From Glycomyces xiaoerkulensis (GTDB lineage Bacteria > Actinomycetota > Actinomycetes > Mycobacteriales > Micromonosporaceae), in contig NZ_PGGV01000004.1 of NCBI RefSeq assembly GCF_002798405.1, positions 1 through 64,000 of the forward strand: a stretch of 64,000 nucleotides of DNA, given 5' to 3'. The translations under genes and the position numbers were made by a program. This document shows positions 10,123 to 24,628 of the stretch, in pieces (position 1 is the stretch's first letter; every line of letters begins with the position of its first letter). The notes beneath the pieces are model-generated. The model made no database searches and was not told the origin of the DNA. It saw nothing but the letters and a program-made list of their open reading frames with translations.

Positions 10123-10734
10123 TCAGCCGGGGCGGGCCGTCCCCAGACGGCTCCGGAGGGCCCGCTCCGCCTCCGGCCACTCACTGTCGAGCATGGAGTA
10201 GAAAACCGCGTCGCGGCGGCGGCCCGACGGCATGTAGTTGTAGGAGCGGAAGACGCCTTCCTCCCGGGCGCCGATCGACTCCAGGGCCCTGCGGGCCGGG
10301 ACGTTGAGCACGTCGGTCTTGAATTCGACGCGCCTGCAGGCCAGGACCTCGAAGGCGTGCTTGAGCAGGAGGTACTTCGCCGCGCGGTTGAGCCCGAGGC
10401 CCTGGTGGGCGCGCGAGAGCCAGGTCCACCCGATCTCCAAGCGGTCGTTGGCCTCGTCCAGGCCGCCGTAGGCGGTGCTGCCGGCGAACTCGCCGGTGCG
10501 GACGTCGACCACGGCGAACGAGTAGCGGGTCCCGGCCCGCCGGTCGGCGAGCATGGCGTCGAAGAACGCCGCGAAGCCCGCTTCGGAGGCGGGCCACGCG
10601 GCGAAGTGGGTCCAGATGGCCTCGTCGCGGGCCAGCTCACGGAGCGGATCGCGGTGCGACTCCGCTATCGGATGCAGCTCGGCCGAATACCCGGCGAGCA
10701 GCGTCGGGGCGGTCTCGCTCCATGGACGCCGCAT
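10123..10734 (-). CDS. GNAT acetyltransferase (RimJ/RimL type)
   Basis: A 203-aa GNAT protein close to ribosomal-protein Ser/Ala N-acetyltransferases. Core features are the beta-4 block RLEIGWTWLSRAHQGLGLNR, the acetyl-CoA-binding Q-x-x-G-x-G/N segment, the AAKYLLLKHAFEVLACRRVE helix and the closing NVPARRALESIGAREEG motif. The substrate is unknown. The stop lies one base past the convergent aldo/keto reductase stop, so no terminator hairpin separates them. It is unlikely to be part of the biosynthetic cluster starting 38 bases upstream of it, although the same strand leaves read-through possible. Confidence 0.88.
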   Translation of the reverse strand: MRRPWSETAPTLLAGYSAELHPIAESHRDPLRELARDEAIWTHFAAWPASEAGFAAFFDAMLADRRAGTRYSFAVVDVRTGEFAGSTAYGGLDEANDRLEIGWTWLSRAHQGLGLNRAAKYLLLKHAFEVLACRRVEFKTDVLNVPARRALESIGAREEGVFRSYNYMPSGRRRDAVFYSMLDSEWPEAERALRSRLGTARPG

Positions 10735-10772: not shown

Positions 10773-12773
10773 TTACATCACAGGACTCCTATCGGCCCCG
10801 GACGCGGCCGGGACGATCCTCGCCGAGGCCAGGTCGCACCGGTTGCCCGGTTCGACCAGTTCCACTACCTCCGGCCAGCGCTCGAGCGGGTCCAGGCCGA
10901 GCGCTCGGTGGAGGCGGTCCGACAGGCGCGGCACCAGCGCGGCGGTGCCCGTCGCCAGGAGGCGCGCCGCGGCCAGTTCCAGGGCGACGGCGGTGCGGGC
11001 CTCGGAGGACCAGGTGTCGAGTTCGGACAGCAGTTCCTGGGTCCGCGAGAACTCGCGGGCGTCGTCGACCAGGTCGCACAGCTCGGCGGCGGCTCGGCGC
11101 GGCGAGAATCTGTCGGGGCTCAGTGCGGCCGTGATCGCCTCCAAGCGGCGGTTCAGATCGGCGTAGAAGGCGGTGTGTTCGTCGGTCCAGGTCCCGGCGT
11201 CGGGGATGGCGCCGTAGCGGTCCTCGACGCGGCGGCCCAGGTCGGTCAACCAGGTCTCCCACCGGCCGATGAGGACCGATTCGGTGAAGGTCTCGTACTC
11301 GGACCGCACGAAGTTGGTGCGCTCGCCTTCGGGGCGGGTCAGGCACAGGTAGAAGCGGACCGAGTCCACCGTCTCGGGCGTGAGGATCTCCCTGCCCCAG
11401 ATGGCGTGGCGCCGGCTGGTGGAGAACTTCTCGCCGTCGAGCAGGTAGAACTCATTGAGGTGGTAGTCGATGTCGGGGTGCCAGTCGGGGAAGGCCGTCC
11501 GGTACATCATCGGCCACAGGACGGTGCTGTAGACGGCGTGGTCGAAGCCGAGGAACATCACCATCTTCCAGTCCCGCTCCGGCCGGTCTGCGCGCCACGG
11601 CCGACCGAGGCGCTCGCCGATGCGGCCGATCGAGTAGAGGAAGCCGAACGCGGTCTCCGGCCAGGACCAGACGGTCTGGCCGGGCAGGGCCGAGTCGGCG
11701 GGCTCGACGCCCCACGTCGAAGGGTGGGTGAGGGCTATGTCGAGGTTCTTGCGGGCGAGGAAGCGCGCGGTCACCTCTCTGGCGCGGGCGGGGACGCGGC
11801 CCTTGCGATGGTGGTCGACGATCTCGTCGGCCAGCTCGTGGACGTCGATCGAGTAGCGTTCGACCTCGTCGGGCACGGGCGGGGCGCCCCCGAGCTTCGA
11901 GACGGGGTCGACCAGATCGGCCACGAGGTTCGGCACGCCGCACTCCTCGCAGCCGTTGCCTCCGGTGAGCTCTCCGCAGGCCGGGCACTTCCCGGCGACT
12001 TTGGCCTCGTAGAGGTACTCGCCGCTGCCGCCGTCGCGCAGTGCCAGGGTGGCGGACGGCCGCACCCTGCCCGAGGCGGTCAAGCGGGCGAAGCAGCCCC
12101 GGAGCGACTCCCGGTAGCCCTCGGCCTCGGAGGTCCTGGTGAACTGGTCGGGCACGATGTCCATGGCCCGCAGGGTCTGCTGTATCTCGGTGGCGTAGCG
12201 GGAGGCGACTTCGGACGGTTCGATCCCTTCCCGGCGGGCGCGGGCGGTCACGTAGCACTGGTAGTCGTCGGAGCCGGACACGTGCCACGCCTCGTTCCCG
12301 AGCAGCCTTTGGAAGCGGACGTAGACGTCGGCGCCGAGGTAGGGCCCGGAGAGGTGGCCCAGGTGCAGGTCGCCGTTGGGGGTGACCGTCGGGCTGCACA
12401 CGAACTGCGGGCGGCCGACGGGGCTGGGGCGCGTGGTCGACCGGGCCGAGGCCTCGGCTCGGCGCGGTCCGCGCCAGTACTGGGTGAACAGGATGAGGTC
12501 CTCGTCGCCGGTGTTGGTGACGGTGTGGGATTCGAACGGCTCGAACAGCGCCACGGTTCCCGGCCGCACCGGGTGGGCCCGGCCGTCCACGCACAGCTCC
12601 CCTCGTCCGGAGACGAACAGGAAGAACTCGGTCTCGTCGTGCTGGTGCCAGGTCGAGGTGGTCCCCGGTGCCACCCGCCCCCAGCCGGCGCCGACGCCGA
12701 GGCCTTGGACTTCGGCGACGTCGATCCCGAAGGCCTCGCCGTAGGTGTTCTGGTCGAAGTAGTCGAGGATCAT
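10773..12773 (-). CDS. Cupin / methionyl-tRNA synthetase-like fusion, N-N bond-forming enzyme
   Basis: A 666-aa two-domain protein. Residues 1-110 form a cupin with metal ligands WHQHDETE (His43, His45, Glu49) and His83. Residues 120-666 resemble MetRS: class I signature HLGH at 137-140, zinc knuckle Cys263/266/275/278, and KFSTS at 449-453 in place of KMSKS. This architecture is that of Spb40 from s56-p1 biosynthesis and its homologues in other hydrazine pathways, where the synthetase domain activates glycine and the cupin joins it to N6-hydroxylysine, forming an N-N bond. Its neighbours supply the hydroxylysine and cleave the product. ATG 12773 overlaps the preceding stop (ATGA). A housekeeping MetRS role is unlikely given the cupin and context. 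Confidence 0.9.
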   Translation of the reverse strand: MILDYFDQNTYGEAFGIDVAEVQGLGVGAGWGRVAPGTTSTWHQHDETEFFLFVSGRGELCVDGRAHPVRPGTVALFEPFESHTVTNTGDEDLILFTQYWRGPRRAEASARSTTRPSPVGRPQFVCSPTVTPNGDLHLGHLSGPYLGADVYVRFQRLLGNEAWHVSGSDDYQCYVTARARREGIEPSEVASRYATEIQQTLRAMDIVPDQFTRTSEAEGYRESLRGCFARLTASGRVRPSATLALRDGGSGEYLYEAKVAGKCPACGELTGGNGCEECGVPNLVADLVDPVSKLGGAPPVPDEVERYSIDVHELADEIVDHHRKGRVPARAREVTARFLARKNLDIALTHPSTWGVEPADSALPGQTVWSWPETAFGFLYSIGRIGERLGRPWRADRPERDWKMVMFLGFDHAVYSTVLWPMMYRTAFPDWHPDIDYHLNEFYLLDGEKFSTSRRHAIWGREILTPETVDSVRFYLCLTRPEGERTNFVRSEYETFTESVLIGRWETWLTDLGRRVEDRYGAIPDAGTWTDEHTAFYADLNRRLEAITAALSPDRFSPRRAAAELCDLVDDAREFSRTQELLSELDTWSSEARTAVALELAAARLLATGTAALVPRLSDRLHRALGLDPLERWPEVVELVEPGNRCDLASARIVPAASGADRSPVM

Positions 12774-13825
12774 GAGGCTCCCTTGTCGCGCTTGGAGATG
12801 AGGTCTTGGACCGCGTCTGCGACGGCCGGCGCCAGGCGGTATCCGGAGCCGTTCGCGGCCCCGGCGTAGAAGACGCCGTCGGCGACGGCCCTGATCACGG
12901 GTTCGCGGTGGGGCGAGTAGGTGTCGCAGAAGACCCGGCCGGAGACGCAGGCGTCGGCCAGGTCGGGGAAGTAGCGGCGCAGCACGGCCCTGCCCTGTTG
13001 GAGGGCCTCGTCGTCGAGTGCGCCGAGGGGCCGGTCGGGGTCGACGTCCCACTCGTCGCAGGTGTAGCTGAACAGCAGGTGCCCGCGTTCGAAGTAGGGG
13101 ACTATGAACGCGTCGTCGTCCTGGAGGATCGTCAGCGGCCGGCCCCGCCGAGGCTCGTGCTCGATGTGGAGGGCGACGATCTTCTTGACCCTGACCCCCA
13201 GCGGCGCCAGCAGGTCGGCCCAGGCCGGATGCCTGATCCACGGCCCGGGGGCCAGGACGACGGAGGCGGCCGTGAGGGTCCTGCCCTGGCCGAGGTCGAC
13301 CGCGGTGGCCCCGTCCAGCGGGCGGAGTCCGACCACTTCGCTGCCCTCCCAGACGGAGGCGCGGTCGCGGACGGCGCGGACGAGGCGCCCGGCGACGTCC
13401 TCCACGTCGGCGTAGTGGCTGCCCTCGGCCTCCCAGACGGCGGTGCCGTCCGGTGGCCGGAATCCGGGCGCGTCGAGGGCCGACCGGTCGGTCCGGCGGA
13501 TCGCGGCCTGCTGGAAGTACTGCTCGGCGATGCGGTCCTTGGAGTTCTCATCGGCGACGACGACGGTGGGGAGCTCCCGGATCGGCAGGTGGTGCCTGCT
13601 CGACCACTCCCGCCAGCGCATGTGGCTGAGCAGGGACATCTCGCGGACGCGGGGGGTGCCGCCCCGGAGCACGTGGACGCCTGCGGACCGGGCGGAGGCC
13701 CCGTGGCCGACCAGGCCGCGTTCGATGAGCGCGACACGCAGGCCGGGGCGGGATTGGAGCAGTTGGAAGGCGGTAGCGGCGCCGATAACGCCGCCACCGA
13801 CGATGGCGACGTCTACCCGTTCCAC
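12770..13825 (-). CDS. FAD-dependent DAO-family oxidoreductase
   Basis: A 351-aa D-amino-acid-oxidase/glycine-oxidase-type flavoenzyme. The N-terminal Rossmann motif VAIVGGGVIGAATA binds FAD, followed by ERGLVGHGASARSAGV, and the C-terminal AGAANGSGYRLAPAVADAV closes the FAD site. In the homologous hydrazinoacetate pathway this enzyme class (Spb39 in s56-p1) oxidatively cleaves N6-(carboxymethylamino)lysine to hydrazinoacetic acid and 2-aminoadipate 6-semialdehyde; that role is inferred here from gene order. GTG 13825 follows a GAGG site and overlaps the end of the lysine hydroxylase gene by 13 bases; the stop overlaps the next gene start. Confidence 0.88.
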   Translation of the reverse strand: MERVDVAIVGGGVIGAATAFQLLQSRPGLRVALIERGLVGHGASARSAGVHVLRGGTPRVREMSLLSHMRWREWSSRHHLPIRELPTVVVADENSKDRIAEQYFQQAAIRRTDRSALDAPGFRPPDGTAVWEAEGSHYADVEDVAGRLVRAVRDRASVWEGSEVVGLRPLDGATAVDLGQGRTLTAASVVLAPGPWIRHPAWADLLAPLGVRVKKIVALHIEHEPRRGRPLTILQDDDAFIVPYFERGHLLFSYTCDEWDVDPDRPLGALDDEALQQGRAVLRRYFPDLADACVSGRVFCDTYSPHREPVIRAVADGVFYAGAANGSGYRLAPAVADAVQDLISKRDKGAS

Positions 13826-15132
13826 GGCGCCTCGCTCTCGGTCTTGGCCGACCACTGGATGAAGGACGGCAGCGGGGATCTGCCGCAGTCGCCCCGCAGG
13901 CGGTTGACGATGCGCTGGGCGCGCCAGGCGTTCAGGCTCAGGTTCACGTCGGGCAGGCCGCGTTGGGCGCGCGCGGCGTTCTGGAGGAAGATCCGCCGGT
14001 CCGCCGGGCCGTCCCAGACCGCCGCGAAGTCGTCGTCCACTTTGAGTTCGCCGCCCTCGCTCTGCATGCGCGGCAGGAGCGGCTCCAGGAAGTCCTTGGG
14101 CGCCGGTCGGAAGCCGGTGGCCCAGACGGCGGCGTCGACGACCATGCTCTGGGAGTCCGCCTCGTCGTTGTGGGACACGACCAGCTCCCAGCGTCCGGAC
14201 GGGAGCCGCTGGAGGTCCTCGACGGTCCGGTTCGGGTACAGGCCGAACGGGTGGTCGCCGTCGTCGATGAAGCGGAGGTGGTATAGCTGCTGGTAGATCG
14301 ACCGGAGCGTGTCCTCGGAGATGCCGTCCGAGGTGAGGATGTGGGAGGCGATGATCTCGGAGCGGATGTCTCGGGGCAGCCGGTGGAAGTAGTCGGAGTA
14401 CTCCGGCATGAACAGGTCGTTGGTGAACGCGGAGTCGTCGATCGGGAAGAAGTTGCGGCGTTTGGCGATCCAGATGACGCTGGACGGGCGTTCGACGGCG
14501 GGCCTGCTGACGAGGTCGAGGAAGGCCTCGGCCCCCGACTGGCCCCCGCCGACGACGGCGACGGTCTTGCCGGCGAGGCCGGCGGCGTGGCGCAGGTGGC
14601 GGCTGACGTGAAAGTGGTCGGCGCCGAGGTGCGGGGCGACGAAGTCGGGAAGCCATGGGAGCGTTCCTACTCCGATGACGATGTTGTCGGCGGTCACTTC
14701 GCGTGCGTCGGTGCGGATTCGGAAGACGCCGTCGAAGTCGACCTCCCGGACGCCCTCGCCGAAGACCACGTTCTCGTTGGTCTCGGCGGCCCAGGACAGA
14801 TAGTTGCGGAACTCCCCCCTCGGCACGGCGGCGAACTGGGCATTGAGGAAGTGGTACATCCGCCCCTGCTGGTTGAGGTAGGCCGTGAAGCTGAACGGGC
14901 TGGTGGGGTCGGTCATGCTCACCAGGTCTTTGAACACCGACACTTGGAGCGTCGCCCCCGATATGAGCTGGTCGTCGTGCCAGGAGAATCGCTCCTTGCG
15001 GTCGACGAAGAGGTTCGGGAGGCCACCGTCCTCGTAGAGCAGGGCCGCCACGCTGAGATTGGCGGGGCCGGCGCCGATGCCGACGACGGAGTAGTGACCC
15101 CCGGGCGGAGGCGCGCGGTGGGGTCTGCGCAT
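13813..15132 (-). CDS. L-lysine N6-monooxygenase
   Basis: FAD- and NADPH-dependent amine N-hydroxylase of the IucD/SidA/PvdA family (439 aa). FAD motif VVGIGAGPANLSVAAL at residues 16-31, NADPH motif VAVVGGGQSGAEAF at 191-204 and the ATGF block (338-341) are all present; LISGATLQVSVFKDLVSMTD and SPFSFTAYL match the substrate-proximal region. The family hydroxylates lysine or ornithine for siderophores, but no siderophore synthetase lies nearby. Next to the cupin-MetRS fusion it most likely supplies N6-hydroxylysine for N-N bond formation. AAAGGAAA precedes ATG 15132. The gene opens a tightly overlapping three-gene unit. Confidence 0.92.
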   Translation of the reverse strand: MRRPHRAPPPGGHYSVVGIGAGPANLSVAALLYEDGGLPNLFVDRKERFSWHDDQLISGATLQVSVFKDLVSMTDPTSPFSFTAYLNQQGRMYHFLNAQFAAVPRGEFRNYLSWAAETNENVVFGEGVREVDFDGVFRIRTDAREVTADNIVIGVGTLPWLPDFVAPHLGADHFHVSRHLRHAAGLAGKTVAVVGGGQSGAEAFLDLVSRPAVERPSSVIWIAKRRNFFPIDDSAFTNDLFMPEYSDYFHRLPRDIRSEIIASHILTSDGISEDTLRSIYQQLYHLRFIDDGDHPFGLYPNRTVEDLQRLPSGRWELVVSHNDEADSQSMVVDAAVWATGFRPAPKDFLEPLLPRMQSEGGELKVDDDFAAVWDGPADRRIFLQNAARAQRGLPDVNLSLNAWRAQRIVNRLRGDCGRSPLPSFIQWSAKTESEAPWNG

Positions 15133-15186
15133 GCTGTTTCCTTTCGGTGACGGCGGGCGGTGGGTCCGGTTGCAGGTGGCGGCGGC

Positions 15187-16329
15187 TCAGGCGGGCAGGG
15201 CGACCGGCACTCCCCAGGAGCCGAGGCGGGTGATCCAGCGCTCTGCGGTGGCCGCGTCCTCGGTGGCGCGGTGGAGGCCCGGCGCGGTGACTCCTTCTAC
15301 AAGGTCGGTGAGGGCGCAGACCAGGGGCAGGGAGACGCAGCGCGCCATGGCGGTGTCGGCGTCGTCGCCGGTCAGGTCGAGTGTGGCGCGGGCGTCGAGG
15401 TCCCGTTCGTCCGCTCCGAGAGCGAGGTCGACGGCCATGACGACTCGGTCGCGGTCATCGGGGGTGGTCGGGTATCTCGCCTGGAGCTCCTCGGCCAGGT
15501 CGACCAACCGCCGCTCGTCTCCGGAGGCGACGACCTCGAACACCTCGGCCCAGGCCTCGGACCAGCCTTCGGGGCGCAGGGTGCCGCGCACGAAGGTGCC
15601 GACCGCGCCGCGGTCCAGCCCGTACTGGGCGATGAAGGGGCGGGAGTCCCGGTTGGGGTAGGCCTCGAAGCACTCCCCGTTGAGGCGGTAGGGCTCGACC
15701 GCCTCCCAGGGGCGGGCGACGGTCACGTCGTCCCCGTCGCGGACGTACGTCGCCGGCTGGCCCAGCGCCCGCAGCACCCCCACAGGGGCCCAGGAGAACC
15801 GGTATTTGAACTCGCCGGGCTCGGCCGGGACGCCGCCGCAATGGGAGCGCAGGGTCGCGCGCTCGGGCTCGGCGCCGAGACGGTCGCGCAGGCGTCCGAC
15901 CAGGATCGCCGTGAGCAGGTGGTCGATCCCCGGGTCGAGCCCGGTCTCGGTGACCACGGCGAGCCCGCGGGAGGCGGCCGCCGGGGCGAGCGCGGCGACC
16001 TCGGCGGAGGTGTAACTGGTGCAGGCGAAGTGCGCTCCGGCGGCCATGGCGACGCGCAGAAGGTCGGCGTGCATGGCCGGGGCCAGCATGGACACGACGA
16101 CGTCGCCGGGCCCGACGCGTTCGGCCAGCCCCTCGTCGAGGCCCCGGATCCGGACGGGCGCGGTGACGCCGAGCTCGGCGAGGCGGCGCTCGGCGCGAGC
16201 GCGGGTGCGGCCCCAGACCACCAGGTCCGCCTCCTGGTGGAGGCGTTCGATTCCGGCTCTCGCGGTAGAGAGCCCGGTTCCGAGCCAATGGACGGTCCCG
16301 CTCGGGGCGGCCAGGGGTGCGTCAAGCAT
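15187..16329 (-). CDS. Saccharopine dehydrogenase (reductase type, LYS9-like)
   Basis: A 380-aa protein of the saccharopine dehydrogenase/homospermidine synthase family. The N-terminal dinucleotide-binding region is modified (VHWLGTGLSTARAGIERLHQ), followed by GPGDVVVSMLAPAMHADLLR, FACTSYTSAEV and the family-typical VVTETGLDPGIDHLLT and SHCGGVPAEP motifs. LYS9-type enzymes condense 2-aminoadipate 6-semialdehyde with glutamate to saccharopine. Here they would act on the semialdehyde released by the DAO enzyme. GGAG supports ATG 16329, and the gene overlaps the stop of the upstream LYS1-like gene by 8 bases. The direction of catalysis is inferred. Confidence 0.82.
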   Translation of the reverse strand: MLDAPLAAPSGTVHWLGTGLSTARAGIERLHQEADLVVWGRTRARAERRLAELGVTAPVRIRGLDEGLAERVGPGDVVVSMLAPAMHADLLRVAMAAGAHFACTSYTSAEVAALAPAAASRGLAVVTETGLDPGIDHLLTAILVGRLRDRLGAEPERATLRSHCGGVPAEPGEFKYRFSWAPVGVLRALGQPATYVRDGDDVTVARPWEAVEPYRLNGECFEAYPNRDSRPFIAQYGLDRGAVGTFVRGTLRPEGWSEAWAEVFEVVASGDERRLVDLAEELQARYPTTPDDRDRVVMAVDLALGADERDLDARATLDLTGDDADTAMARCVSLPLVCALTDLVEGVTAPGLHRATEDAATAERWITRLGSWGVPVALPA

Positions 16330-17347
16330 GGGTGGTCTCCGATTCGGCGAGGGCGTCGCGGAAGGCGCCGCGGCTGCGGGCCCAGGATTCGTTTCGGGGG
16401 AAGTCGAGCAGGTACGGCAGGAGCTGCCGCGAGAAGTCCGAACTGGACTCTCGGGGCAGCAGCGAGGGAAGATTGTCGATGGCGATGACGGCGACTCCGG
16501 AGTCGGTGTCCGCGACCGGCGCGGCCCACGAGGTGCGGTCCCGGTAGAACGGCAGCAGGTGGTACGGCGTGCCGACATCGCAGGTGACGTCGGCGACGAG
16601 CGACAGGCGCCCGCCCGGGTCCAGGTGCCGCCGGGACAGGAAGGGCTCGGTCGGGCGGTCGGTGAGGACGGCGTTGATCAGGAGGTCGTGGTCGGTCAGC
16701 GCCTCGCGGTCGAGATCGCGGGTCTCCTCGACGTCCCAGCCGGTGGCCTCGACGCCGGCCGCGGCCAGGGCCTCCCGGGCGCCGCGGCCGCATCGTCCGG
16801 CCGAACCGGTGACGAGCACGCGAACCGGCCGGCGGCACCGGCGCAGCGAGGCGACCAGCGCGGACCGCTCCGTCGGCTCCAGCGGTGCCTCCAGTCGGCC
16901 GTTCCAGTGCAGCATCGCCAGTGCGGCGCCGGTGAATCCGGCCCAGTATCCGAAGGCGGCGACCCGCCGTCCGGCGGCGTCGGTCAGGGATTCCAGGTCG
17001 AGCAGTTCGCCGCCCCCGGCGGCGAAGCGGCCGAGCAGGTCACCGGCGCCCGGCTGACCCTTGTAGCAGTGCCCGAAGTAGGCGTGGCGTCCGCTCACCG
17101 GGCGATCGGTTCCGGGCAGCGCCTTGAGGCCGAGGACGAGCGCGTCGGCGGGTGCGGCGGGCCAGTGTCCGCGGCCCTCGAGGCGGCAGCCGGCGCGGCG
17201 GTATTCCTCGTCGGGGAAGCAGCGGGTATCGGATCGTTCGATGTGGACGGGGATGCCGTCGGCGATGAGCCTCCGGGCGTCCTGCGGGGTCAGCGGGGTC
17301 CTGGTTTCGTCGGGGTGGTGTTCGTGCCTGAGCCAGATGCGGTTCAA
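16322..17347 (-). CDS. Saccharopine dehydrogenase (L-lysine-forming, LYS1-like)
   Basis: A 341-aa protein of the alanine dehydrogenase/LYS1 fold. The N-terminus WLRHEHHPDETRTPLTPQDA is the conserved opening of LYS1-type enzymes; AYFGHCYKGQPG, FGYWAGFTGAALAM and the cofactor region RVLVTGSAGRCGRGAREAL follow, with LINAVLTDRP and SLVADVTCDVGTP downstream. Such enzymes split saccharopine to lysine and 2-oxoglutarate with NAD+. Together with the adjacent reductase it would regenerate lysine. The start is TTG 17347, preceded by GAGAGGGG; this agrees with the family N-terminus. It is the first gene of the minus-strand arm and faces the AT-rich promoter region. Confidence 0.82.
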   Translation of the reverse strand: MNRIWLRHEHHPDETRTPLTPQDARRLIADGIPVHIERSDTRCFPDEEYRRAGCRLEGRGHWPAAPADALVLGLKALPGTDRPVSGRHAYFGHCYKGQPGAGDLLGRFAAGGGELLDLESLTDAAGRRVAAFGYWAGFTGAALAMLHWNGRLEAPLEPTERSALVASLRRCRRPVRVLVTGSAGRCGRGAREALAAAGVEATGWDVEETRDLDREALTDHDLLINAVLTDRPTEPFLSRRHLDPGGRLSLVADVTCDVGTPYHLLPFYRDRTSWAAPVADTDSGVAVIAIDNLPSLLPRESSSDFSRQLLPYLLDFPRNESWARSRGAFRDALAESETTHA

Positions 17348-17623: not shown

Positions 17624-18871
17624 ATGGCCACAGTCGACGACGTACGCGCCGAGAGGATCCCGGGCCGGATGCGACTCGCCGTGGCCGGCGACTACCTGCT
17701 CTCCCATCTCGGGTTCTTCACCGTCTCGCCGGTCTTGGCGGCCGTCCTCACCGCGAGCCCGGCTCCGAACGCCGAGCTCTACGTCGGCATCGCCCTGTTC
17801 TGCTTCGCCTTCGCCATGCGGGGCGCCTCGCTGTTCCTGGTCTCGGCTCTCCGGCACCTGCGGTACCGGACCGCCATGGCCGCCGGCCTCGGCGTGGCCG
17901 CGGTCGCGTTCCTCCTGCTGGGACTGGTGACCGAGCCGCTACCGGCGATCCCGCTGCTGCTGGCGGCGGGGTGCGGCATCAACATGAACGGTCTGATGGC
18001 GCGGGTCTACATCACCGACAGTCTCCGGGCCAAATCGAACCGGCACCGGATGTTCACGCTGATCCAGATCACCGTGAACGTCTCGGCCGCCGTCGGGCCG
18101 TTCATCGGGAACCTGCTGCTCGAAGTGGAGCCGCTGTACCTGTTCGGCGTCATCAGCGTCTGCTACGGATTCGCCGCGCTCGTCACGTTCGGGCTCGTCC
18201 CCGGGAGCCTCCGCCCCGACGCCGCCGCCATCCGGTCACCGCTGCGGTGGACGACCATCCGATCGATCGCCATGCACCCCAGGGTCAGGCTGACGGTCGG
18301 CATGGCGATCCTCGGCGGTTTCCTGTACGCCCAGCTCTTCTCCGGCATCTCCTTGCACGTGATCGACACGGTCGACAATTCGGCGCTGCGGGCCACCGTG
18401 TTCGCCGCCAACGCGGTCCTGGTGGTCGCGGTGCAGATACCGGTGACGGCGCTCGTGGCCCGATGGCTGGACCGCGAGGTGAACCCGGTGTCGGTGATGG
18501 CCATCGGCATCGGGCTGTTCTGCGCGGCGTTCGCCGTCATGGGGCTCGCGGGCGCCTGGTTCGCCGGATTGATCGCCATGATCGTGGTCTTCTCGGTCGG
18601 CGAGACCTTCTTCACGCCCACGATGGACACGGCGTTCACCGCGTTCGACAACGAGCTGTCCTCGATGGAGCTGGTGAATCTGCGCCTGATCTCCAACACC
18701 ATCGGCGAATCGACCGGGTCCTTCATCGGCGTCAGCGTCTTCCTCGCGGCCGTGGGCAGCGGCCTGGGGAGCCTGTACTGGTACGGCCTCGGCGCGATCG
18801 GGGCCGCCCTCGCGCTGATCCTGACAGCGCGGTCCAGATCGGCCGCCGCCGCGAGTAGAGAGGCGATGTGA
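17624..18871 (+). CDS. MFS transporter, probable product exporter
   Basis: A 415-aa major facilitator superfamily protein with about twelve hydrophobic segments. The N-terminal half has GDYLLSHLGFFTVSPVLAAV and the central loop carries RVYITDSLRAKSNRHRMFTL, a place where MFS exporters show the basic A-like motif; the second half includes GLIAMIVVFSVGETFFTPTM. It begins the plus-strand arm and overlaps the next gene by one base, so it is co-translated with the ATP-grasp ligases. Export of or self-resistance to the cluster product is the likely role. Only a weak site (AGAAAG) precedes ATG 17624. Confidence 0.85.
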   Translation: MATVDDVRAERIPGRMRLAVAGDYLLSHLGFFTVSPVLAAVLTASPAPNAELYVGIALFCFAFAMRGASLFLVSALRHLRYRTAMAAGLGVAAVAFLLLGLVTEPLPAIPLLLAAGCGINMNGLMARVYITDSLRAKSNRHRMFTLIQITVNVSAAVGPFIGNLLLEVEPLYLFGVISVCYGFAALVTFGLVPGSLRPDAAAIRSPLRWTTIRSIAMHPRVRLTVGMAILGGFLYAQLFSGISLHVIDTVDNSALRATVFAANAVLVVAVQIPVTALVARWLDREVNPVSVMAIGIGLFCAAFAVMGLAGAWFAGLIAMIVVFSVGETFFTPTMDTAFTAFDNELSSMELVNLRLISNTIGESTGSFIGVSVFLAAVGSGLGSLYWYGLGAIGAALALILTARSRSAAAASREAM

Positions 18872-20094
18872 TGCGAGCACTCATGGTGGGCTACAACGAG
18901 GGGGCCCTGGCCGCCCTCGACGCGCATCCCGACGAGTTCGAGGTGTGGGTCCTGGAGGAGCCGGACCTGTGGCGCAACAAGGGCCTGCAGAAAAAGGCCG
19001 ACGCGCACCCGGTCCTCGCCGAGACCGTGTTCGCCCCCTACCAGCAGAGCACCGGTTACCGCGAAGCCCTCGCCGGGCTGCCGCGGTTCGACGCCGTCGC
19101 CGCCGGCCTGGAGTACGCCGTCCCGGCCGCCGCCGACCTGGCCGAGCGGCTGGACCTGCCGGGCGCCGGCTCGCAGGCCGCGTCCATTTTGCGCAACAAG
19201 CTGCGGCTGCGCGAGGCGACCGCCGCCGCCGGCATGCGCTGCCCCGAGTTCCGCGAGGTCGCCTCCGCGGCGGAGGTCAGCGCCTTCCACTCCGCCGGTC
19301 CGTGCGTGGTGAAACCGGCCGAGCGCCAAGCGAGCCTCGGAGTGACGCTCCTGGGACCGGGCGACGATCCCGAGCGGGCTTGGGAGGCCGCCCTCGGGGC
19401 CGACGAGGGAGTCCAGCTCGCCGAACGCGACATGCGCTGGCAGTACATGGCCGAGCGGCGCCTGGAAGGGCCCGAGTACTCCACCGAGGTCCTCGTCTTC
19501 GAGGGCGAGACCCGGTTCCTCAACGTGACCCGCAAGGAGTGCTTCCCCGGCAGCCGCCCGGTGGAGGCGGGCCACCTGCTGCCGGTCGATTCCGGTTCGG
19601 ACCGCTGGGAGCGGGCGGTCGCCGATCTCGTCGCCGCCGTGGGCTTCTCCAGCGGAATCCTTCACGCCGAGTGGATCGACACCGATCCGGGTCCGACCCT
19701 CGTCGAGGTCGCCGGTCGCCCGCCCGGCGACTTCATCGTGGACCTGATCGACCGCGCCTGGGGGGTGGACCTGCACCGCCTCTGGCTCCGGATGCTGGCG
19801 GGCGAGGACATCGCAGCGCCGCGTTCACCCCGAGGAGGAGCCGCGATCCGGTTCCTCCGCTCCGAGCCCGGCACCATCGCCGCCGTCGAAGGGGCCGAAA
19901 CCGTCGCCGAACGCGACGAGGTCTGGAAGGCCGACGTCACCAAGAAGCCGGGCGACCGCGTCGCCGACGTCCAGTCGTCCTGGGACCGCGTCGGGTGCGT
20001 CGCGACCGTCGGCGCCGACGCCGAGACCGCCCGCGCCCTCGCCGTCGAGGCCGCATCGCACATCACCGTCACCGTGGAAGGTGCTCAACAGTGA
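18871..20094 (+). CDS. ATP-grasp ligase 1
   Basis: A 407-aa ATP-grasp enzyme of the carbamoyl-phosphate-synthase-like branch, which forms amide bonds through an acyl-phosphate. The N-terminal pre-ATP-grasp region is MRALMVGYNEGALAALDAHP; ILRNKLRLREATAAAGMRCP starts the ATP-grasp core, CVVKPAERQASLGVTLL gives the nucleotide-binding Lys and loop, and LVEVAGRPPGDFIVDLIDRA holds the Mg-binding acidic residue and Arg. Start ATG 18871 shares a base with the transporter stop and follows GAGAGG; its own stop overlaps the next start (GTGA). It probably joins one building block of the product; substrates are unknown. Confidence 0.85.
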   Translation: MRALMVGYNEGALAALDAHPDEFEVWVLEEPDLWRNKGLQKKADAHPVLAETVFAPYQQSTGYREALAGLPRFDAVAAGLEYAVPAAADLAERLDLPGAGSQAASILRNKLRLREATAAAGMRCPEFREVASAAEVSAFHSAGPCVVKPAERQASLGVTLLGPGDDPERAWEAALGADEGVQLAERDMRWQYMAERRLEGPEYSTEVLVFEGETRFLNVTRKECFPGSRPVEAGHLLPVDSGSDRWERAVADLVAAVGFSSGILHAEWIDTDPGPTLVEVAGRPPGDFIVDLIDRAWGVDLHRLWLRMLAGEDIAAPRSPRGGAAIRFLRSEPGTIAAVEGAETVAERDEVWKADVTKKPGDRVADVQSSWDRVGCVATVGADAETARALAVEAASHITVTVEGAQQ

Positions 20095-21350
20095 AACCCG
20101 CCGTCCTGTTCCTCAACACGCGCCGGACCGAGCTCGAGTACGCGCCGGCCTTCGAGGCCGCCCGCGAGCTCGGCTACGATCCGGTCCTGATCTGCGACGC
20201 CGATCCGGGACCGGCCAAACTCCGGTACGCGGCCGAGGTCCACGTCGTCGACACCTACGACGCGGACAAGACCGTGGACCTGGCCCGCGACATCGCCCGG
20301 CACCGCACCGTCGCCGGAGTCACCACCTGGTCGGACCGGGACGTGGTCACCGTGGCCCTCATCGCAGAGGCCCTCGGGCTCCCCGGCACGCCGGTAGAGG
20401 CGGCCCGCGCGGTCCGAAACAAGGCCCTCATGCGCCGCCGCCTCGCGCACCGCCCCGAGCTGATCCCACCGTTCCGCGTGGTGCGCGGCCGCGAGGACCT
20501 CGCGGAGGCGGTCGCCGCGATCGGGTTCCCCGCCGTGCTCAAGCCGACCGTCGGCTCCGGTTCCAAGGGCATCTACCTGCTCCACGACGAGACCGCTGCC
20601 GAACGCGCCTGGGAGGCGCTCGACGCCTACACCACCGCCGGCGGTGACCGGGTCTTCGAGTCCGCGCCCGGCGAACTGGTCTACGAGCGCATGCTCCAGG
20701 GCACCGAGCACAGCGTCGAGGGATTCGTCTCCGACGGCCGGATCGTCACCGCCGGCATCACCGACAAGGAAACGACTCCGGACTTCCGCCTCGAGGCCGC
20801 CCACGTCTTCCCCACCGCGCTCCCCGAGGAGTCGGCCGCAGTCGTGCACCGGTTCGCCGAGGCCGTGGTCGCCGAGTACGGCCTGGACAACTGCGCGTTC
20901 CACCTCGAATGCATCCTCGAGGACGACGGCGAGCCGCGCCTGGTCGAAGTCGCCGGACGCATCGGCGGGGACTACATCACCTCGCACCTGGTCCCGCTCG
21001 CTACCGGACGCTCCTACTACGCCGACGCCGTCCGAGTCGCGACCGGTGAGCCGCTGACCGGCGCGGATTACACCGCCGACCACATCGCCACGGTCCGCAA
21101 GGCCATGGCCGACCGCGCCGGGACCTTCCGCGGCATCGCGAACTGGGAGGAGACCGCCGCCGACGACCGACTGGTGGCCTGCTGCCTCGAGCACGCCGAC
21201 GGCGACGCCGTCCGACTGCCGCCCGACGACTTCATGAGCTGCGTCGTCGCGACCCTCATAGCCCGCCGGCCGCTCGGCGACCGGGAGCAGGCCGTCCACG
21301 ATGTCGCAGCGATCGCCGCCGACCTCGAAGTGGAGATCGAACGGCCATGA
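20091..21350 (+). CDS. ATP-grasp ligase 2
   Basis: A 419-aa ATP-grasp enzyme related to BacD/carnosine-synthase-like amino acid ligases. AVRNKALMRRRLAH opens the ATP-grasp core, VLKPTVGSGSKGIYLLHD supplies the ATP-binding Lys and Gly-rich loop, GTEHSVEGFVSDGRIV is the conserved strand pair, and CAFHLECILEDDGEPRLVEV with GRIGGDYITSHL forms the metal and acyl-phosphate site. GGAAGG precedes GTG 20091; both ends overlap neighbours by four bases. The three ligases differ enough in sequence that each probably makes a different bond. Confidence 0.87.
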   Translation: MKPAVLFLNTRRTELEYAPAFEAARELGYDPVLICDADPGPAKLRYAAEVHVVDTYDADKTVDLARDIARHRTVAGVTTWSDRDVVTVALIAEALGLPGTPVEAARAVRNKALMRRRLAHRPELIPPFRVVRGREDLAEAVAAIGFPAVLKPTVGSGSKGIYLLHDETAAERAWEALDAYTTAGGDRVFESAPGELVYERMLQGTEHSVEGFVSDGRIVTAGITDKETTPDFRLEAAHVFPTALPEESAAVVHRFAEAVVAEYGLDNCAFHLECILEDDGEPRLVEVAGRIGGDYITSHLVPLATGRSYYADAVRVATGEPLTGADYTADHIATVRKAMADRAGTFRGIANWEETAADDRLVACCLEHADGDAVRLPPDDFMSCVVATLIARRPLGDREQAVHDVAAIAADLEVEIERP

Positions 21351-22669
21351 GCGAACACCGGACCATCGTCGTCCTCGGCTGCACCTCGATCTACCCGCAC
21401 GGCGCGCATCAGCTCAGATGCGTCCGAGAGCAGGCCGAGCGCCGCGGTATCCGGCTGGTGGGGGCCGACACCGCCGCGCATCTGGAGCAGTTCGACGACG
21501 CGCTGGACGGCCTCGAGACGATCGCGGTCGACTTCTCCGACCACCGGGGGCTGGCCGAACGCGCGGCCTCGGCGGGCGCGGACGCCGTACTGACCTACAA
21601 GGAGGCCTACGTCGTCCTCGCGGCCAAGGTCGCGAAGGCGCTGGGGCTCAAGGGCAATACGCCGGAGGCCGTCGAGCGCCTCCGGCACAAGGACCGGTTC
21701 CGGTTGCACCTGGCCGCGCATGGATTCGACCAGCCCCGCCTCGCGCTTGCCGACTCCGCCGAAGCCGCCCTCGACATCGTCGACTTCGCCGAATCCGAGA
21801 CCTGGATCGTCAAGCCCCGCAGCGAGTCCGGCAGCGTCGGCGTCGCCGCCGTCCGCGACGCCGACCAGCTTCGCCGCGCCTGCTCGGGCCTGGAGCCGCC
21901 GTTCATCGTCGAGCACTTCGTCTCCGGCGACGAGTACTCGGTGGAGGGGATCTTCCTCAACGGGCGACCGGTGCCCCTGGGGATCACCGAGAAGCGGGTG
22001 AACCACCGGTTCGTCGAGACGGGACACCGCATCGACGCCGACACGCTCGACACGCCCTTCGGCAAGCGGGCGAGCCGGACCGTCGCCGACGCCATGGTCG
22101 CCAGCGGCCTGAGACACGGGGCCTTCCACGTCGAACTGTGGAAGCTCGGCGGACAGATCATCCTGGGCGAGGCCCACATCCGGCCCGGCGGCGACTTCAT
22201 CCACCTGCTGCTGCAGGCCAGCCGCCCCGGCCTCGAGCTCTACGGGCTGCTCATGGACGACCTGCTCGGCCGCCCCACCGACCCCGAGTCGATTCCACCG
22301 GCCACCCGCGCCGCCGGCATCGACTACCTCGACCTGCCCGTCGGCCGCGTGACCGCCGTCGGCGACTGGCGCTCCGAGGCCCGCCACCCGGGTCTCCTGG
22401 ACACCTGCCTCGACCTGTCCCCCGGCGACACCGTCGAGGAGTTGACCGACTCCACCCAGCGCCGCGGGCACGTCGCCGTGGCCGCCGACACCCGCACCGC
22501 GCTCGACGACGATCTGCCGCGCCTGGCGCGGCTTATCACCGAGACCGTGCGTACCGCCTTAACGCTTCCGCCCGATCCCGGCGGTTGCCACGTCCCCCCA
22601 CCGAGCGGCACCGCCGTCGCTCGGTCGCCCCTTCGGCACAAGGAGGCCCCGTGTCACGTCCCTCGCTGA
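21347..22669 (+). CDS. ATP-grasp ligase 3
   Basis: A 440-aa ATP-grasp enzyme. The N-terminal domain begins with IVVLGCTSIYPHGAHQLRCV; RLRHKDRFRLHLAAHGFDQP, WIVKPRSESGSVGVAAV, HFVSGDEYSVEGIFLNGRPV and LGEAHIRPGGDFIHLLLQA follow in the usual order. The last motif replaces the common N/E-V-x-x-R with EAHIRPGG, which still offers an acid and an Arg. The C-terminus is extended by a Pro-rich tail that runs into the start of the ferredoxin gene (19-base overlap). Role inferred as the third peptide-bond-forming step. Confidence 0.85.
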   Translation: MSEHRTIVVLGCTSIYPHGAHQLRCVREQAERRGIRLVGADTAAHLEQFDDALDGLETIAVDFSDHRGLAERAASAGADAVLTYKEAYVVLAAKVAKALGLKGNTPEAVERLRHKDRFRLHLAAHGFDQPRLALADSAEAALDIVDFAESETWIVKPRSESGSVGVAAVRDADQLRRACSGLEPPFIVEHFVSGDEYSVEGIFLNGRPVPLGITEKRVNHRFVETGHRIDADTLDTPFGKRASRTVADAMVASGLRHGAFHVELWKLGGQIILGEAHIRPGGDFIHLLLQASRPGLELYGLLMDDLLGRPTDPESIPPATRAAGIDYLDLPVGRVTAVGDWRSEARHPGLLDTCLDLSPGDTVEELTDSTQRRGHVAVAADTRTALDDDLPRLARLITETVRTALTLPPDPGGCHVPPPSGTAVARSPLRHKEAPCHVPR

Positions 22670-22965
22670 GCGACAGGAAGACCCGCATCGAACTGCGAAC
22701 CAGGGACCCCAGGTGGAAGGCGCCGCCGCGGTTCATCGCGGCCAATGAGTGCATCCACTGCAATTCCTGCGTCCGGGCCTGCCCGGAGTCCTTCGATGCC
22801 ATCGCCAACGTCTCCCACGACGTCGTGATCGTCCCCGAGCTCTGCTCGGGCTGCCCCAAATGCGTCGACGCCTGCCCGGTCGACTGCATCTACCCGGCCG
22901 CCGACTGGGAGCCGACCGTGCAGGACCGCGTCTGGAAGGAGGTTGCACGTGACGACGAGGACTGA
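22651..22965 (+). CDS. 2[4Fe-4S] ferredoxin
   Basis: A 104-aa electron carrier with two complete cluster motifs: Cys34-x2-Cys37-x2-Cys40-x3-Cys44 (in CIHCNSCVRACP) and Cys65-x2-Cys68-x2-Cys71-x3-Cys75 (in CSGCPKCVDACP), plus Cys79. A 30-residue N-terminal extension precedes the fold. AGGAGG before GTG 22651 is an ideal ribosome-binding site. It overlaps the ligase gene upstream and the unknown 559-aa gene downstream, so it is probably the dedicated redox partner of a cluster enzyme rather than a general ferredoxin. Confidence 0.92.
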   Translation: MSRPSLSDRKTRIELRTRDPRWKAPPRFIAANECIHCNSCVRACPESFDAIANVSHDVVIVPELCSGCPKCVDACPVDCIYPAADWEPTVQDRVWKEVARDDED

Positions 22966-24628
22966 TGGTGCGCGCAACCGGCGCGCCACCCGGAGCCGGC
23001 GCCCCTCCCGCGAAGGAGCGGTCGCCGGCTACTCCGATCCGCCCCCGGCGGAGGACCCGACGCCGCTGCGGCTCATGCGGGACCGCATGTCCGGACTGGC
23101 GGCCGAGGCCGGAGTCGCCGCGGTGCTGCCGAGACTGATCAGCATGGACGGCAGGATCGATCCCGGATCGGCACCGCTCCAGCTCACCAGGGCCGAGCGA
23201 CGCGCCCTGCCGCTCCTGACCGGCGACGACGGCGAGGCGGGCAGGACCGTCTTCAAAGGCGCCGTGGGTTACACCGCCTGCGGCAAGCCCTTCCTGGACA
23301 CCCCGAGCGGACCGCCGGCGGCCTCGACGGTCGCCGTCCTCGAACCGGTCGGGCTCCTGGCGTGGTCCGACGCGCGGGTCGAGGCGTTCCTTGGATCCGA
23401 TGCGGCGGCGGAGGACGAGGCGGAACTCGATCGCGCGAGGGCGTATTTGGGAGCACTCCATACTCGTGGCGGCCTCGGCGACGCCGTCACCGCGATCCGC
23501 AGGACCCTGCCGCACGTCGCACCGATCACGACCCACTGCGGCCAGTTCACCATCACCAACCTCCACTCTCCGCGCACGCTCACCGGGCAGTCCCAGGTCA
23601 CCGCCAACCCCGACTGCGTCCTGCACGGTCTGGAGCGCGCACCACTGTCCGAGTGGCCCGACCGCTCCGTGCTGTTCACCGCACTCGCCTGGCGGCTCAT
23701 GCGCCAGTGGGGGCCGAACGGGCTCGAGTACCTCAACGGGATGCAGCTCGGCCACGACCTGCTCACCACCGAGACGCCGTCGACCGAGATCGGCACAGGC
23801 GCCACGTTCCGGTTCCGGCGCATCGACGGCGTGCTCCGCCGAAAGCGGATCGAATCGGTGAGCCACGGGGAGGTCGCCTCCCCCGAGCTCGAACGCCTAC
23901 TGCCGGAGGACCCGGAGCGCCCTGCCGGCACCGCCGCCGGACGCGTCGAGGCGTTCGAGCTGCTCGTGGACGGCCTGCTGCGTTTCATCCGCCGCGCCAC
24001 CGACGCCGAACTGGCCATGAGCCGCGGCTTCCGCGACCTTCCCCTCCTGGCCGAGGTCGCCGAGACCGGCGACCGGCGGGGCCTGGTCGACTCCCACATG
24101 GACGACCAGTACTGCTGCGTCGAGGCCGAGCCCCCGCCCGGCGATCCGGACTCGGCCGACCGGCTGTGGGCGATCTCGTCGCGGATGCGCTACAACTCCT
24201 GGCACTTCCGACCCTGGGGCGGGACCGAAGGGGAGCGCCCCGAACTGGAGACCTACTACCCGCCGGCCCTCCCGGACATCACCACCCACGCCGACTTCCA
24301 CCACCCCGGCCACATCAACTACCGGGTCAAGCACGCGATCCGCGCGCCGCAGGCGGTCGCGGTCGGCCCCACCGAGTTCACCGGCCTACTGGACGTGCGG
24401 CTGTCGCGCTCCCAGGACAGGCCGTTCACCCTGAACGACCTGGTGCTGGCGGTAGAGGTGTCGCGGCGCATCGCCGAGGCGTACCGGGGACTCCTGCTCG
24501 CCGAGCTCGACGGGCGGGGCCCGCACCGGCTTCTCGGATTCGACCTCGACTGGTACCGCTGCCGCTATCTGCCGCAAGGCACGACCGCCGCCGAAACTTC
24601 GGAACCGGGACCTCCGTCGAGCCCATGA
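22949..24628 (+). CDS. Unknown 559-aa biosynthetic protein
   Basis: I do not recognise a family. It is soluble, with no signal peptide or membrane helix. Notable blocks are FKGAVGYTACGKPFLDTP (about 102-119), THCGQFTITNLHSPRTLTG (195-213), HMDDQYCCVEAE (383-394), RMRYNSWHFRPWGG (412-425) and a His-rich THADFHHPGHINYRVKHA (446-463) that could bind a metal. AAGGAGG at 22936-22942 sits six bases before GTG 22949, inside the ferredoxin gene, whose last 17 bases it overlaps. The tight coupling to a ferredoxin suggests a metal-dependent redox step late in the pathway, but this is inference from position only. Confidence 0.7.
   Translation: MTTRTDGARNRRATRSRRPSREGAVAGYSDPPPAEDPTPLRLMRDRMSGLAAEAGVAAVLPRLISMDGRIDPGSAPLQLTRAERRALPLLTGDDGEAGRTVFKGAVGYTACGKPFLDTPSGPPAASTVAVLEPVGLLAWSDARVEAFLGSDAAAEDEAELDRARAYLGALHTRGGLGDAVTAIRRTLPHVAPITTHCGQFTITNLHSPRTLTGQSQVTANPDCVLHGLERAPLSEWPDRSVLFTALAWRLMRQWGPNGLEYLNGMQLGHDLLTTETPSTEIGTGATFRFRRIDGVLRRKRIESVSHGEVASPELERLLPEDPERPAGTAAGRVEAFELLVDGLLRFIRRATDAELAMSRGFRDLPLLAEVAETGDRRGLVDSHMDDQYCCVEAEPPPGDPDSADRLWAISSRMRYNSWHFRPWGGTEGERPELETYYPPALPDITTHADFHHPGHINYRVKHAIRAPQAVAVGPTEFTGLLDVRLSRSQDRPFTLNDLVLAVEVSRRIAEAYRGLLLAELDGRGPHRLLGFDLDWYRCRYLPQGTTAAETSEPGPPSSP

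What the first reader, a model, noticed from the sequence alone, without database searches (positions are those of the whole stretch)
10773..17347. Hydrazinoacetate pathway with a built-in lysine-regeneration cycle
Seen: lysine N6-hydroxylase, cupin-MetRS fusion and DAO flavoenzyme overlap in one operon, and two saccharopine-dehydrogenase-type genes (LYS9-like and LYS1-like) lie directly upstream of them in the same direction. Known: the first three types make hydrazinoacetic acid from N6-hydroxylysine and glycine in s56-p1 biosynthesis (Spb38, Spb40, Spb39) and leave 2-aminoadipate 6-semialdehyde. Inferred: the two extra enzymes turn that semialdehyde back to lysine through saccharopine, making lysine a reusable nitrogen carrier and glutamate the real nitrogen donor.
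Basis: partly seen in the sequence, partly recalled or inferred. Interest (0 to 1): 0.92.

Follow-up and report, generated by a model that had tools for sequence, protein, structure and literature searches.

The report
Lysine-recycling cassette beside hydrazine genes
Next to the genes that take a nitrogen from lysine to build a reactive hydrazine, this bacterium carries two enzymes that probably turn the leftover back into lysine; the same gene pair is already known, though barely explained, in relatives that make azaserine and triacsin.

Summary
In detail: LYS1-like, LYS9-like, lysine N6-hydroxylase, FAD oxidase and cupin-MetRS genes lie on the minus strand, 17347-10773, overlapping or closely spaced. 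A GNAT gene akin to those of other hydrazine clusters follows (10734-10123).

The arrangement is not new. Azaserine (AzsH/AzsI) and triacsin (Tri23/Tri24) clusters carry the pair; the azaserine paper guessed "lysine supply" and cites that tri23/tri24 disruption did not change triacsin.

New here: in 392 sampled genomes of one genus (taken as Streptomyces), 17 of 24 fusion loci carry the pair. It keeps saccharopine-enzyme residues, diverges in step with the hydrazine genes, and two genomes have a matching cluster in which just these two genes are missing. The host has its own lysA.

Best reading: the pair regenerates lysine, with nitrogen from glutamate, from the semialdehyde that the oxidase releases. 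No activity, direction or substrate was shown.

Against it: 9 of 12 pair-bearing genomes of a wider sample have it in an unrelated operon (LYS9 there forms a separate group), and 7 of 24 fusion loci lack it.

The parts
16322..17347 (-). LYS1-like saccharopine dehydrogenase (NAD, lysine-forming type), P0005
   Evidence: yeast Lys1 structures 2q99/2qrj/3ugk at 1.4e-59 to 3.2e-58; K77, H96, E16, R18, E122, D319 kept; K13 is H and E78 is A
15187..16329 (-). LYS9-like saccharopine reductase, P0004
   Evidence: Sacchrp_dh_C 6.8e-34; 1e5l at 1.8e-30; keeps the 49 positions that are invariant between 35 bacterial rows and the M. grisea segment, and differs at two more (P77, P236) that all other rows keep
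13813..15132 (-). lysine N6-hydroxylase (Spb38/Tri26/AzsL type), P0003
   Evidence: PF13434 9.3e-94; 66-67% identical to LysOH of G402/G481
12770..13825 (-). FAD oxidase of the DAO family (Spb39/Tri27/AzsM type), P0002
   Evidence: PF01266 1.1e-39; 52% to the G402 homologue
10773..12773 (-). cupin-MetRS hydrazine synthetase (Spb40/Tri28 type; no carrier-protein domain reported by Pfam, unlike AzsN), P0001
   Evidence: Cupin_2 and tRNA-synt_1g; H43, H45, E49, H83, HLGH and KFSTS motifs present; 61% to G402/G481
10123..10734 (-). GNAT acyltransferase, likely HAA N-acyl (succinyl) transferase, sixth gene of the operon
   Evidence: 44-59% identical to GNATs in other hydrazine loci; the AzsS role is from PMC10445470
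17624..18871 (+). MFS transporter, first gene of the divergent operon
   Evidence: PF07690 1.4e-12
18868..20094 (+). ATP-grasp amino-acid-ligase-like protein 1
   Evidence: PF18603, PF13535
20091..21350 (+). ATP-grasp ligase-like protein 2
   Evidence: PF13535 5.2e-20
21347..22669 (+). ATP-grasp ligase-like protein 3
   Evidence: PF13535, PF18603
22651..22965 (+). 4Fe-4S dicluster ferredoxin
   Evidence: PF14697 5.9e-12
22949..24628 (+). 559-aa protein of unknown function; membership of the cluster uncertain
   Evidence: no Pfam match up to E 1; distant relatives in 8 plasmid records (0 of 8 covering 80% of it) and in 6 other genomes of 394, in none of them within a fusion locus seen here; AlphaFold model unusable, mean pLDDT 37

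Best explanation
The leftward operon is an HAA operon with a lysine-regeneration cassette. LysOH makes N6-hydroxylysine; cupin-MetRS joins it to glycine; the DAO oxidase cuts the C-N bond, giving HAA and 2-aminoadipate 6-semialdehyde (steps known from homologues, inferred here). The LYS9-like reductase condenses the semialdehyde with glutamate to saccharopine, and the LYS1-like dehydrogenase splits saccharopine into lysine and 2-oxoglutarate (inferred from sequence). Lysine would thus be a returning carrier, with its epsilon nitrogen renewed from glutamate. The cycle saves lysine and removes a reactive aldehyde, but HAA formation does not depend on it. The GNAT probably acylates HAA; what the divergent ATP-grasp operon then makes is unknown.
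For: (1) True saccharopine enzymes by sequence: K77 and H96 (named catalytic from recall) in 46 of 46 LYS1 rows; 49 positions identical between the M. grisea enzyme segment and all 35 LYS9 rows. (2) Linkage: 17 of 24 fusion loci in the genus sample carry LYS1 with LYS9 next to it, 16 in the gene run upstream of LysOH (LYS1 3.6-6.7 kb from the fusion gene) and 1 (G617) about 12 kb away; a rough chance estimate is 0.2 loci. In the plasmid collection the 6 of 7 LYS9 records with at least 80% coverage are all fusion records. (3) Shared history: pairwise identities of LYS1, LYS9, LysOH, DAO and fusion across 23 loci correlate at Spearman 0.83-0.94, 0 of 999 permutations as high for each of 10 comparisons (relatedness of strains alone adds to this). 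LYS1, LYS9 and fusion trees all join the window to G402/G481. (4) Clean presence/absence: G572 and G656, in the same fusion clade as G402/G481, have LysOH 121 and 76 bp after the acyl-CoA-dehydrogenase-like gene, where G402/G481 have about 2.3 kb holding the pair, and no LYS1 elsewhere at E 1e-10. (5) The host has a lysA over the curated cut-off, 444.9 vs 297.9 bits, so the pair is not needed for ordinary lysine synthesis; its substrate semialdehyde is what the oxidase releases (PMC13274452 passage).
Against: No enzyme activity or direction was shown; the Lys1 reaction is reversible (recalled). Disruption of tri23 and tri24 did not affect triacsin (PMC10445470, citing earlier work I could not read). 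7 of 24 fusion loci in the genus sample and 4 of 7 full-length fusion genomes in the class sample lack the pair. The pair also occurs without hydrazine genes nearby in 9 of 12 class-sample genomes that have it; in two of those nine one gene is broken (G301 LYS1, G018 LYS9). The window LYS1 has H for K13 and A for E78, shared only with G402 and G481 among 46 rows. In S. noursei, 15N-aspartate gave no label in N-nitroglycine while epsilon-15N-lysine did; I could not see whether that cluster has the pair.
Confidence: 0.7

Rival explanations
1. Generic lysine supply or yield booster, as the azaserine authors wrote: the pair raises precursor lysine without being a closed cycle with the oxidase.
For: Published wording. 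Another cluster may solve supply differently: the Rhizobium rhizogenes triad has a dapA-annotated gene about 2 kb away.
Against: A saccharopine route makes lysine only if 2-aminoadipate semialdehyde is present; the host has lysA of the DAP route, and the cluster itself releases the semialdehyde, so supply and recycling nearly coincide.
Confidence: 0.12
2. Aldehyde clearance: the pair exists mainly to remove toxic semialdehyde/piperideine carboxylate; the lysine regained is a by-product.
For: Same chemistry; explains why mutants may show no loss of product.
Against: A single dehydrogenase to aminoadipate would do for clearance; two co-diverging genes that end in lysine suggest the product matters.
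Confidence: 0.1
3. One or both enzymes act on the hydrazine adduct itself, as PyrL was suggested to do in pyrazomycin biosynthesis, giving a second way to cut the C-N bond.
For: A putative saccharopine dehydrogenase, PyrL, was suggested to convert an adduct to 2-hydrazinoglutaric acid (PMC8664883 passage).
Against: The oxidase for this cut is present in every locus that holds both LYS1 and the fusion; the pair-less loci of the genus sample keep the triad; saccharopine-enzyme residues are conserved.
Confidence: 0.05
4. The pair is a passenger: recruited from an actinomycete saccharopine operon and little used.
For: Same pair in an unrelated operon (L055-L063); tri23/tri24 disruption silent; pair absent from G572/G656.
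Against: Kept in 17 of 24 loci; all 24 hydrazine-linked rows give LYS1 and LYS9 as one stop-free piece with active-site residues; LYS9 of hydrazine loci is one group.
Confidence: 0.03

Closest known systems
azaserine cluster azsH-azsI-(azsJ-azsK)-azsL-azsM-azsN (PMC10445470)
   Same: Same gene order: saccharopine pair, then LysOH, DAO, cupin-MetRS; GNAT (AzsS) present
   Different: In window 1-30000 no match at 1e-10 to azaserine-type NRPS, AMP ligase, carrier protein, C45 peptidase, acyl-CoA-dehydrogenase-like or HDO genes; an AMP ligase and acyl-CoA dehydrogenases at 37.7-43.3 kb are only 27-32% identical to those references. Instead three ATP-grasp ligases, ferredoxin and a 559-aa protein, divergent
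triacsin cluster tri22-tri30
   Same: Tri23/Tri24 then Tri26/27/28 by the azaserine paper's table; window genes group with G402/G481, which I call triacsin-like by gene order only
   Different: Carrier-protein hydrazone module not found
s56-p1 genes spb38-39-40
   Same: The three HAA enzymes
   Different: Saccharopine pair: I saw no statement that spb has one; not tested
SAT1-like clusters with lysine 2,3-aminomutase and peptide ligase (negamycin-like by my recall of the structure)
   Same: HAA triad with ATP-grasp/PGM1-type ligases nearby (L013; L106, L111 by similarity)
   Different: No saccharopine pair at these three loci; aminomutase, SET and PGM1-type genes not matched in window 1-30000
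Operon with GTP cyclohydrolase II, PTPS, creatininase, FAD oxidase, LYS1, LYS9 (L055-L063)
   Same: Same two enzymes, LYS1 then LYS9, behind an FAD oxidase of the DAO family (8 of 9 loci)
   Different: No match to LysOH or fusion in the 20 kb fetched; own group in LYS1 and LYS9 trees; oxidase only 25% identical to the window's

Membership tests
HAA-forming triad (Spb38/39/40, AzsLMN, Tri26-28) | LysOH, DAO and cupin-MetRS genes adjacent and colinear | tested here: met
HAA-forming triad (Spb38/39/40, AzsLMN, Tri26-28) | Cupin metal-site residues and class I synthetase motifs in the fusion | tested here: met
   H43/H45/E49/H83, HLGH, KFSTS; ligand roles recalled
HAA-forming triad (Spb38/39/40, AzsLMN, Tri26-28) | Glycine as acceptor, HAA as product | not testable with these tools
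   Inferred from nesting among azaserine-, triacsin- and SAT1-like loci
Saccharopine pair of azs/tri (AzsH/AzsI, Tri23/Tri24) | LYS1-like then LYS9-like, upstream of LysOH | tested here: met
Saccharopine pair of azs/tri (AzsH/AzsI, Tri23/Tri24) | Catalytic residues of saccharopine dehydrogenase and reductase | tested here: met
   K13H and E78A noted
Saccharopine pair of azs/tri (AzsH/AzsI, Tri23/Tri24) | Turns semialdehyde plus glutamate into lysine | not testable with these tools
   needs assay
Azaserine/triacsin-type hydrazone cluster | AMP ligase, carrier protein, acyl-CoA-dehydrogenase-like oxidase and C45 peptidase | tested here: not met
   no match at 1e-10 in window 1-30000; in 30001-64000 no carrier protein or C45 match at 1e-5, and AMP ligase/acyl-CoA dehydrogenases only 27-32% identical, against at least 48% (34 rows) and 54% (20 rows) for hits at 1e-40 among the compared loci; they sit beside a thiolase and a branched-chain-type ABC transporter. 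Such genes elsewhere in the genome were not sought
SAT1-like (negamycin-like) cluster | lysine 2,3-aminomutase and PGM1-type ligase beside the triad | tested here: not met
   no match at 1e-10 in window 1-30000 nor at 1e-5 in 30001-64000

The most novel reading that the evidence does not exclude
Lysine works as a true recyclable nitrogen carrier, with glutamate as the real donor, in most Streptomyces HAA pathways; and LYS1-LYS9 is a portable regeneration cassette placed behind C-N-cleaving flavoenzymes, used also in an apparently undescribed operon (FAD oxidase-LYS1-LYS9 with GTP cyclohydrolase II, PTPS and creatininase).
Probability: 0.2. Interest if true: 0.75.

Novelty: new member of a known kind. 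Interest (0 to 1): 0.45.

Why it matters
It gives a concrete, testable job to two genes that the azaserine paper lists but hardly explains. If right, cupin-MetRS hydrazine formation is glutamate-fed and lysine is catalytic, which changes how isotope feeding is read and how such pathways are fed in heterologous hosts. The loci in which just these two genes are missing (G572, G656) are a natural control.

Tried and rejected
Rejected: pair needed for HAA (clusters without it; published mutants). Rejected: ordinary lysine biosynthesis (lysA present). Rejected: pair or LYS1 unique to hydrazine loci (operon L055-L063; LYS1 without LYS9 or hydrazine genes in the fetched flanks of L010, L011, L012, L019, L066-L069). 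Rejected as an independent role for one lone LYS1: on plasmid p2 of W1SF4 (L010) it looks like a remnant of a lost azaserine-type cluster, with stretches 89% and 93% identical to L007. Led nowhere: structure of the 559-aa protein (pLDDT 37); one genome-contig scan gave 1 locus only; three papers sought by DOI on triacsin and azaserine not held; one literature search for the GTP-cyclohydrolase operon gave 0 papers. In print: I searched for lysine regeneration with HAA or triacsin and found only the 'lysine supply' remark; the word saccharopine does not occur in the main texts of PMC13274452, PMC13061610 and PMC11705231 (passages only seen). Subscription papers were not searchable.

Tree rows are best tblastn pieces; G301 LYS1 (two pieces) was dropped, L009 was dropped as a duplicate of L114, and L055 (G018) LYS9 is a 69% piece. 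Of the 11 rows called RIB in the trees, 8 come from the inspected operon loci and 3 (L127, L140, L144) were put there without seeing their wider surroundings. The operon was Pfam-scanned in L059 only; the other eight loci were matched by clustering. The class-sample association excludes chance only moderately without the window's own genome (2 of 6 fusion genomes with pair, hypergeometric 0.01; with it 3 of 7, 0.0007). 'Full-length fusion' means the 7 matches at E <= 1e-222 of the 16 at E <= 1e-60; G191 holds one 49% partial match on another contig than its pair. Of 22 plasmid records with at least 80% of the fusion, the 20-row listing was seen and 11 were opened as regions.
Full report
WHAT IS THERE. 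Five minus-strand genes run 17347 to 10773: LYS1-like (341 aa), LYS9-like (380 aa), lysine N6-hydroxylase (439 aa), DAO-family oxidase (351 aa) and cupin-MetRS fusion (666 aa), with overlaps of 8, 13 and 4 bp and one gap of 54 bp. A GNAT gene follows after 38 bp (10734-10123); it is 44-59% identical to GNATs in other hydrazine loci, and the azaserine GNAT, AzsS, succinylates HAA (PMC10445470, passages read). On the other strand starts an operon of MFS, three ATP-grasp ligases, a 4Fe-4S ferredoxin and a 559-aa protein of unknown family. In window 1-30000 no called gene matches the AMP ligase, carrier protein, C45 peptidase, acyl-CoA-dehydrogenase-like enzyme or NRPS of azaserine-type clusters at 1e-10. 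At 37.7-43.3 kb there are an AMP ligase and two acyl-CoA dehydrogenases, but they are only 27-32% identical to the hydrazine-cluster references and sit beside a thiolase and a branched-chain-type ABC transporter. So the product class is probably different from azaserine and triacsin.

ARE THE TWO ENZYMES WHAT THEY LOOK LIKE? The LYS1-like protein is closest among solved structures to yeast lysine-forming saccharopine dehydrogenase (1.4e-59), the LYS9-like protein to Magnaporthe saccharopine reductase (1.8e-30). Over 46 LYS1 rows K77, H96, E16, R18, E122 and D319 do not vary; over 35 LYS9 rows 49 positions equal the Magnaporthe segment. Two positions, K13 (here H) and E78 (here A), carry H and A in the window, G402 and G481 only. 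The roles of these residues are recalled, not from a call.

HOW COMMON IS THE ARRANGEMENT? In 392 genomes of the genus of G293, 23 genomes have 24 full-length fusion loci. Seventeen of the 24 loci have LYS1 with LYS9 next to it: 6 directly before LysOH, 2 with one small unlabelled ORF call between, 8 with an ATP-grasp and an MFS gene between, 1 (G617) about 12 kb downstream of the fusion. Without the pair: G396, G427, G534, G572, G656, G681 and the second locus of G532. In 394 genomes of the class, 15 have LYS1, 12 of these 15 have LYS9, 7 have a full-length fusion, and 3, the window's own included, have both in one locus. In the plasmid collection 22 records hold at least 80% of the fusion, 10 hold LYS1, 7 hold LYS9; the 6 LYS9 records with at least 80% coverage are all fusion records, while for 4 of 10 LYS1 records no hydrazine gene of the window matched in the 12-15 kb fetched on each side.

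RESULTS AGAINST. Nine of the 12 pair-bearing genomes of the class sample have the pair in another operon (L055-L063); in L059 it reads Zn-ADH-like, PTPS, glycosyltransferase, methyltransferase-like, LPG-synthase-TM, creatininase (opposite strand), GTP cyclohydrolase II, FAD oxidase, LYS1, LYS9. In two of the nine one gene is broken (G301 LYS1, G018 LYS9). In the LYS9 tree hydrazine-linked rows and these rows fall on the two sides of one branch (100/100); in the LYS1 tree the operon rows are one side of a branch (100/99) but the hydrazine-linked rows are not one group (6 changes), partly because lone LYS1 copies nest among them. So recruitment from, or exchange with, ordinary saccharopine genes is likely. 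tri23/tri24 disruption was reported to leave triacsin unchanged. S. noursei cells took epsilon-15N-lysine but not 15N-aspartate label into N-nitroglycine (PMC13274452, passages); whether its cluster has the pair I could not see.

SHARED HISTORY AND NATURAL ABSENCE. For 23 pair-bearing loci, identity matrices of the five proteins correlate at 0.83-0.94, none of 999 permutations as high in any of 10 comparisons. G402 is the nearest row to the window for all five proteins, and trees of LYS1, LYS9 and fusion put window, G402 and G481 together. G572 and G656 sit inside this group in the fusion tree; the node joining them to G402 is weak (89/48) but the four-locus node is firm (100/99). Between their acyl-CoA-dehydrogenase-like gene and LysOH are 121 and 76 bp, against 2355 and 2288 bp in G402/G481, where the pair lies. 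They have no LYS1 elsewhere at E 1e-10; LYS9 elsewhere was not searched. The simplest reading is loss of the cassette as a unit; gain in the others is not excluded.

MECHANISM. Known for homologues: lysine to N6-hydroxylysine, coupling to glycine, oxidation to HAA plus 2-aminoadipate 6-semialdehyde (PMC13274452 and PMC10445470 passages). Inferred here: semialdehyde + glutamate + NADPH to saccharopine (LYS9-like), saccharopine + NAD to lysine + 2-oxoglutarate (LYS1-like). Net: glycine + glutamate to HAA + 2-oxoglutarate, lysine catalytic. The host's lysA (444.9 bits against a cut-off of 297.9) fits an accessory role.

WHAT IS KNOWN. [quoted passage not shown] I found no explicit statement of a lysine/glutamate cycle in the held open-access library; three papers on triacsin and azaserine that I asked for by DOI are not held, so it may be in print. 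Hence: a new member of a known kind, in a cluster whose product looks new.

Noticed in passing
window 17624-24628 (+): Divergent operon with three tandem ATP-grasp ligases, ferredoxin and a 559-aa orphan protein: suggests an HAA-containing product ligated without NRPS or carrier protein.
   Followed up: partly
L055-L063 (e.g. L059 1178-11221): Conserved operon with PTPS, glycosyltransferase, GTP cyclohydrolase II, creatininase, FAD oxidase, LYS1 and LYS9 and no hydrazine gene matched; oxidase and LYS1 overlap by 4 bp in L059. One literature search found no description.
   Followed up: partly
L010 14983-16062 (plasmid p2 of Streptomyces sp. W1SF4): Lone LYS1 whose surroundings are 89% and 93% identical to two separate stretches of an azaserine-type plasmid locus (L007): probable remnant after loss of the cluster.
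   Followed up: yes
L020 2677-3591 (Rhizobium rhizogenes plasmid): HAA-type triad without the pair has a dapA-annotated gene nearby, perhaps another way to secure lysine.
   Followed up: no
fusion residue H43 (window 12647-12645, -): The first histidine of the cupin HxH motif is D or Q in 6 of 17 pair-less fusion rows (L015, L072, L073, L099, L100, L119) and in 0 of 24 pair-bearing rows; on the fusion tree these are three sister pairs, so about three changes. Unexplained.
   Followed up: no
window 24-1406 (-): DDE transposase gene at the very start of the window, which is also the start of contig C34.
   Followed up: no
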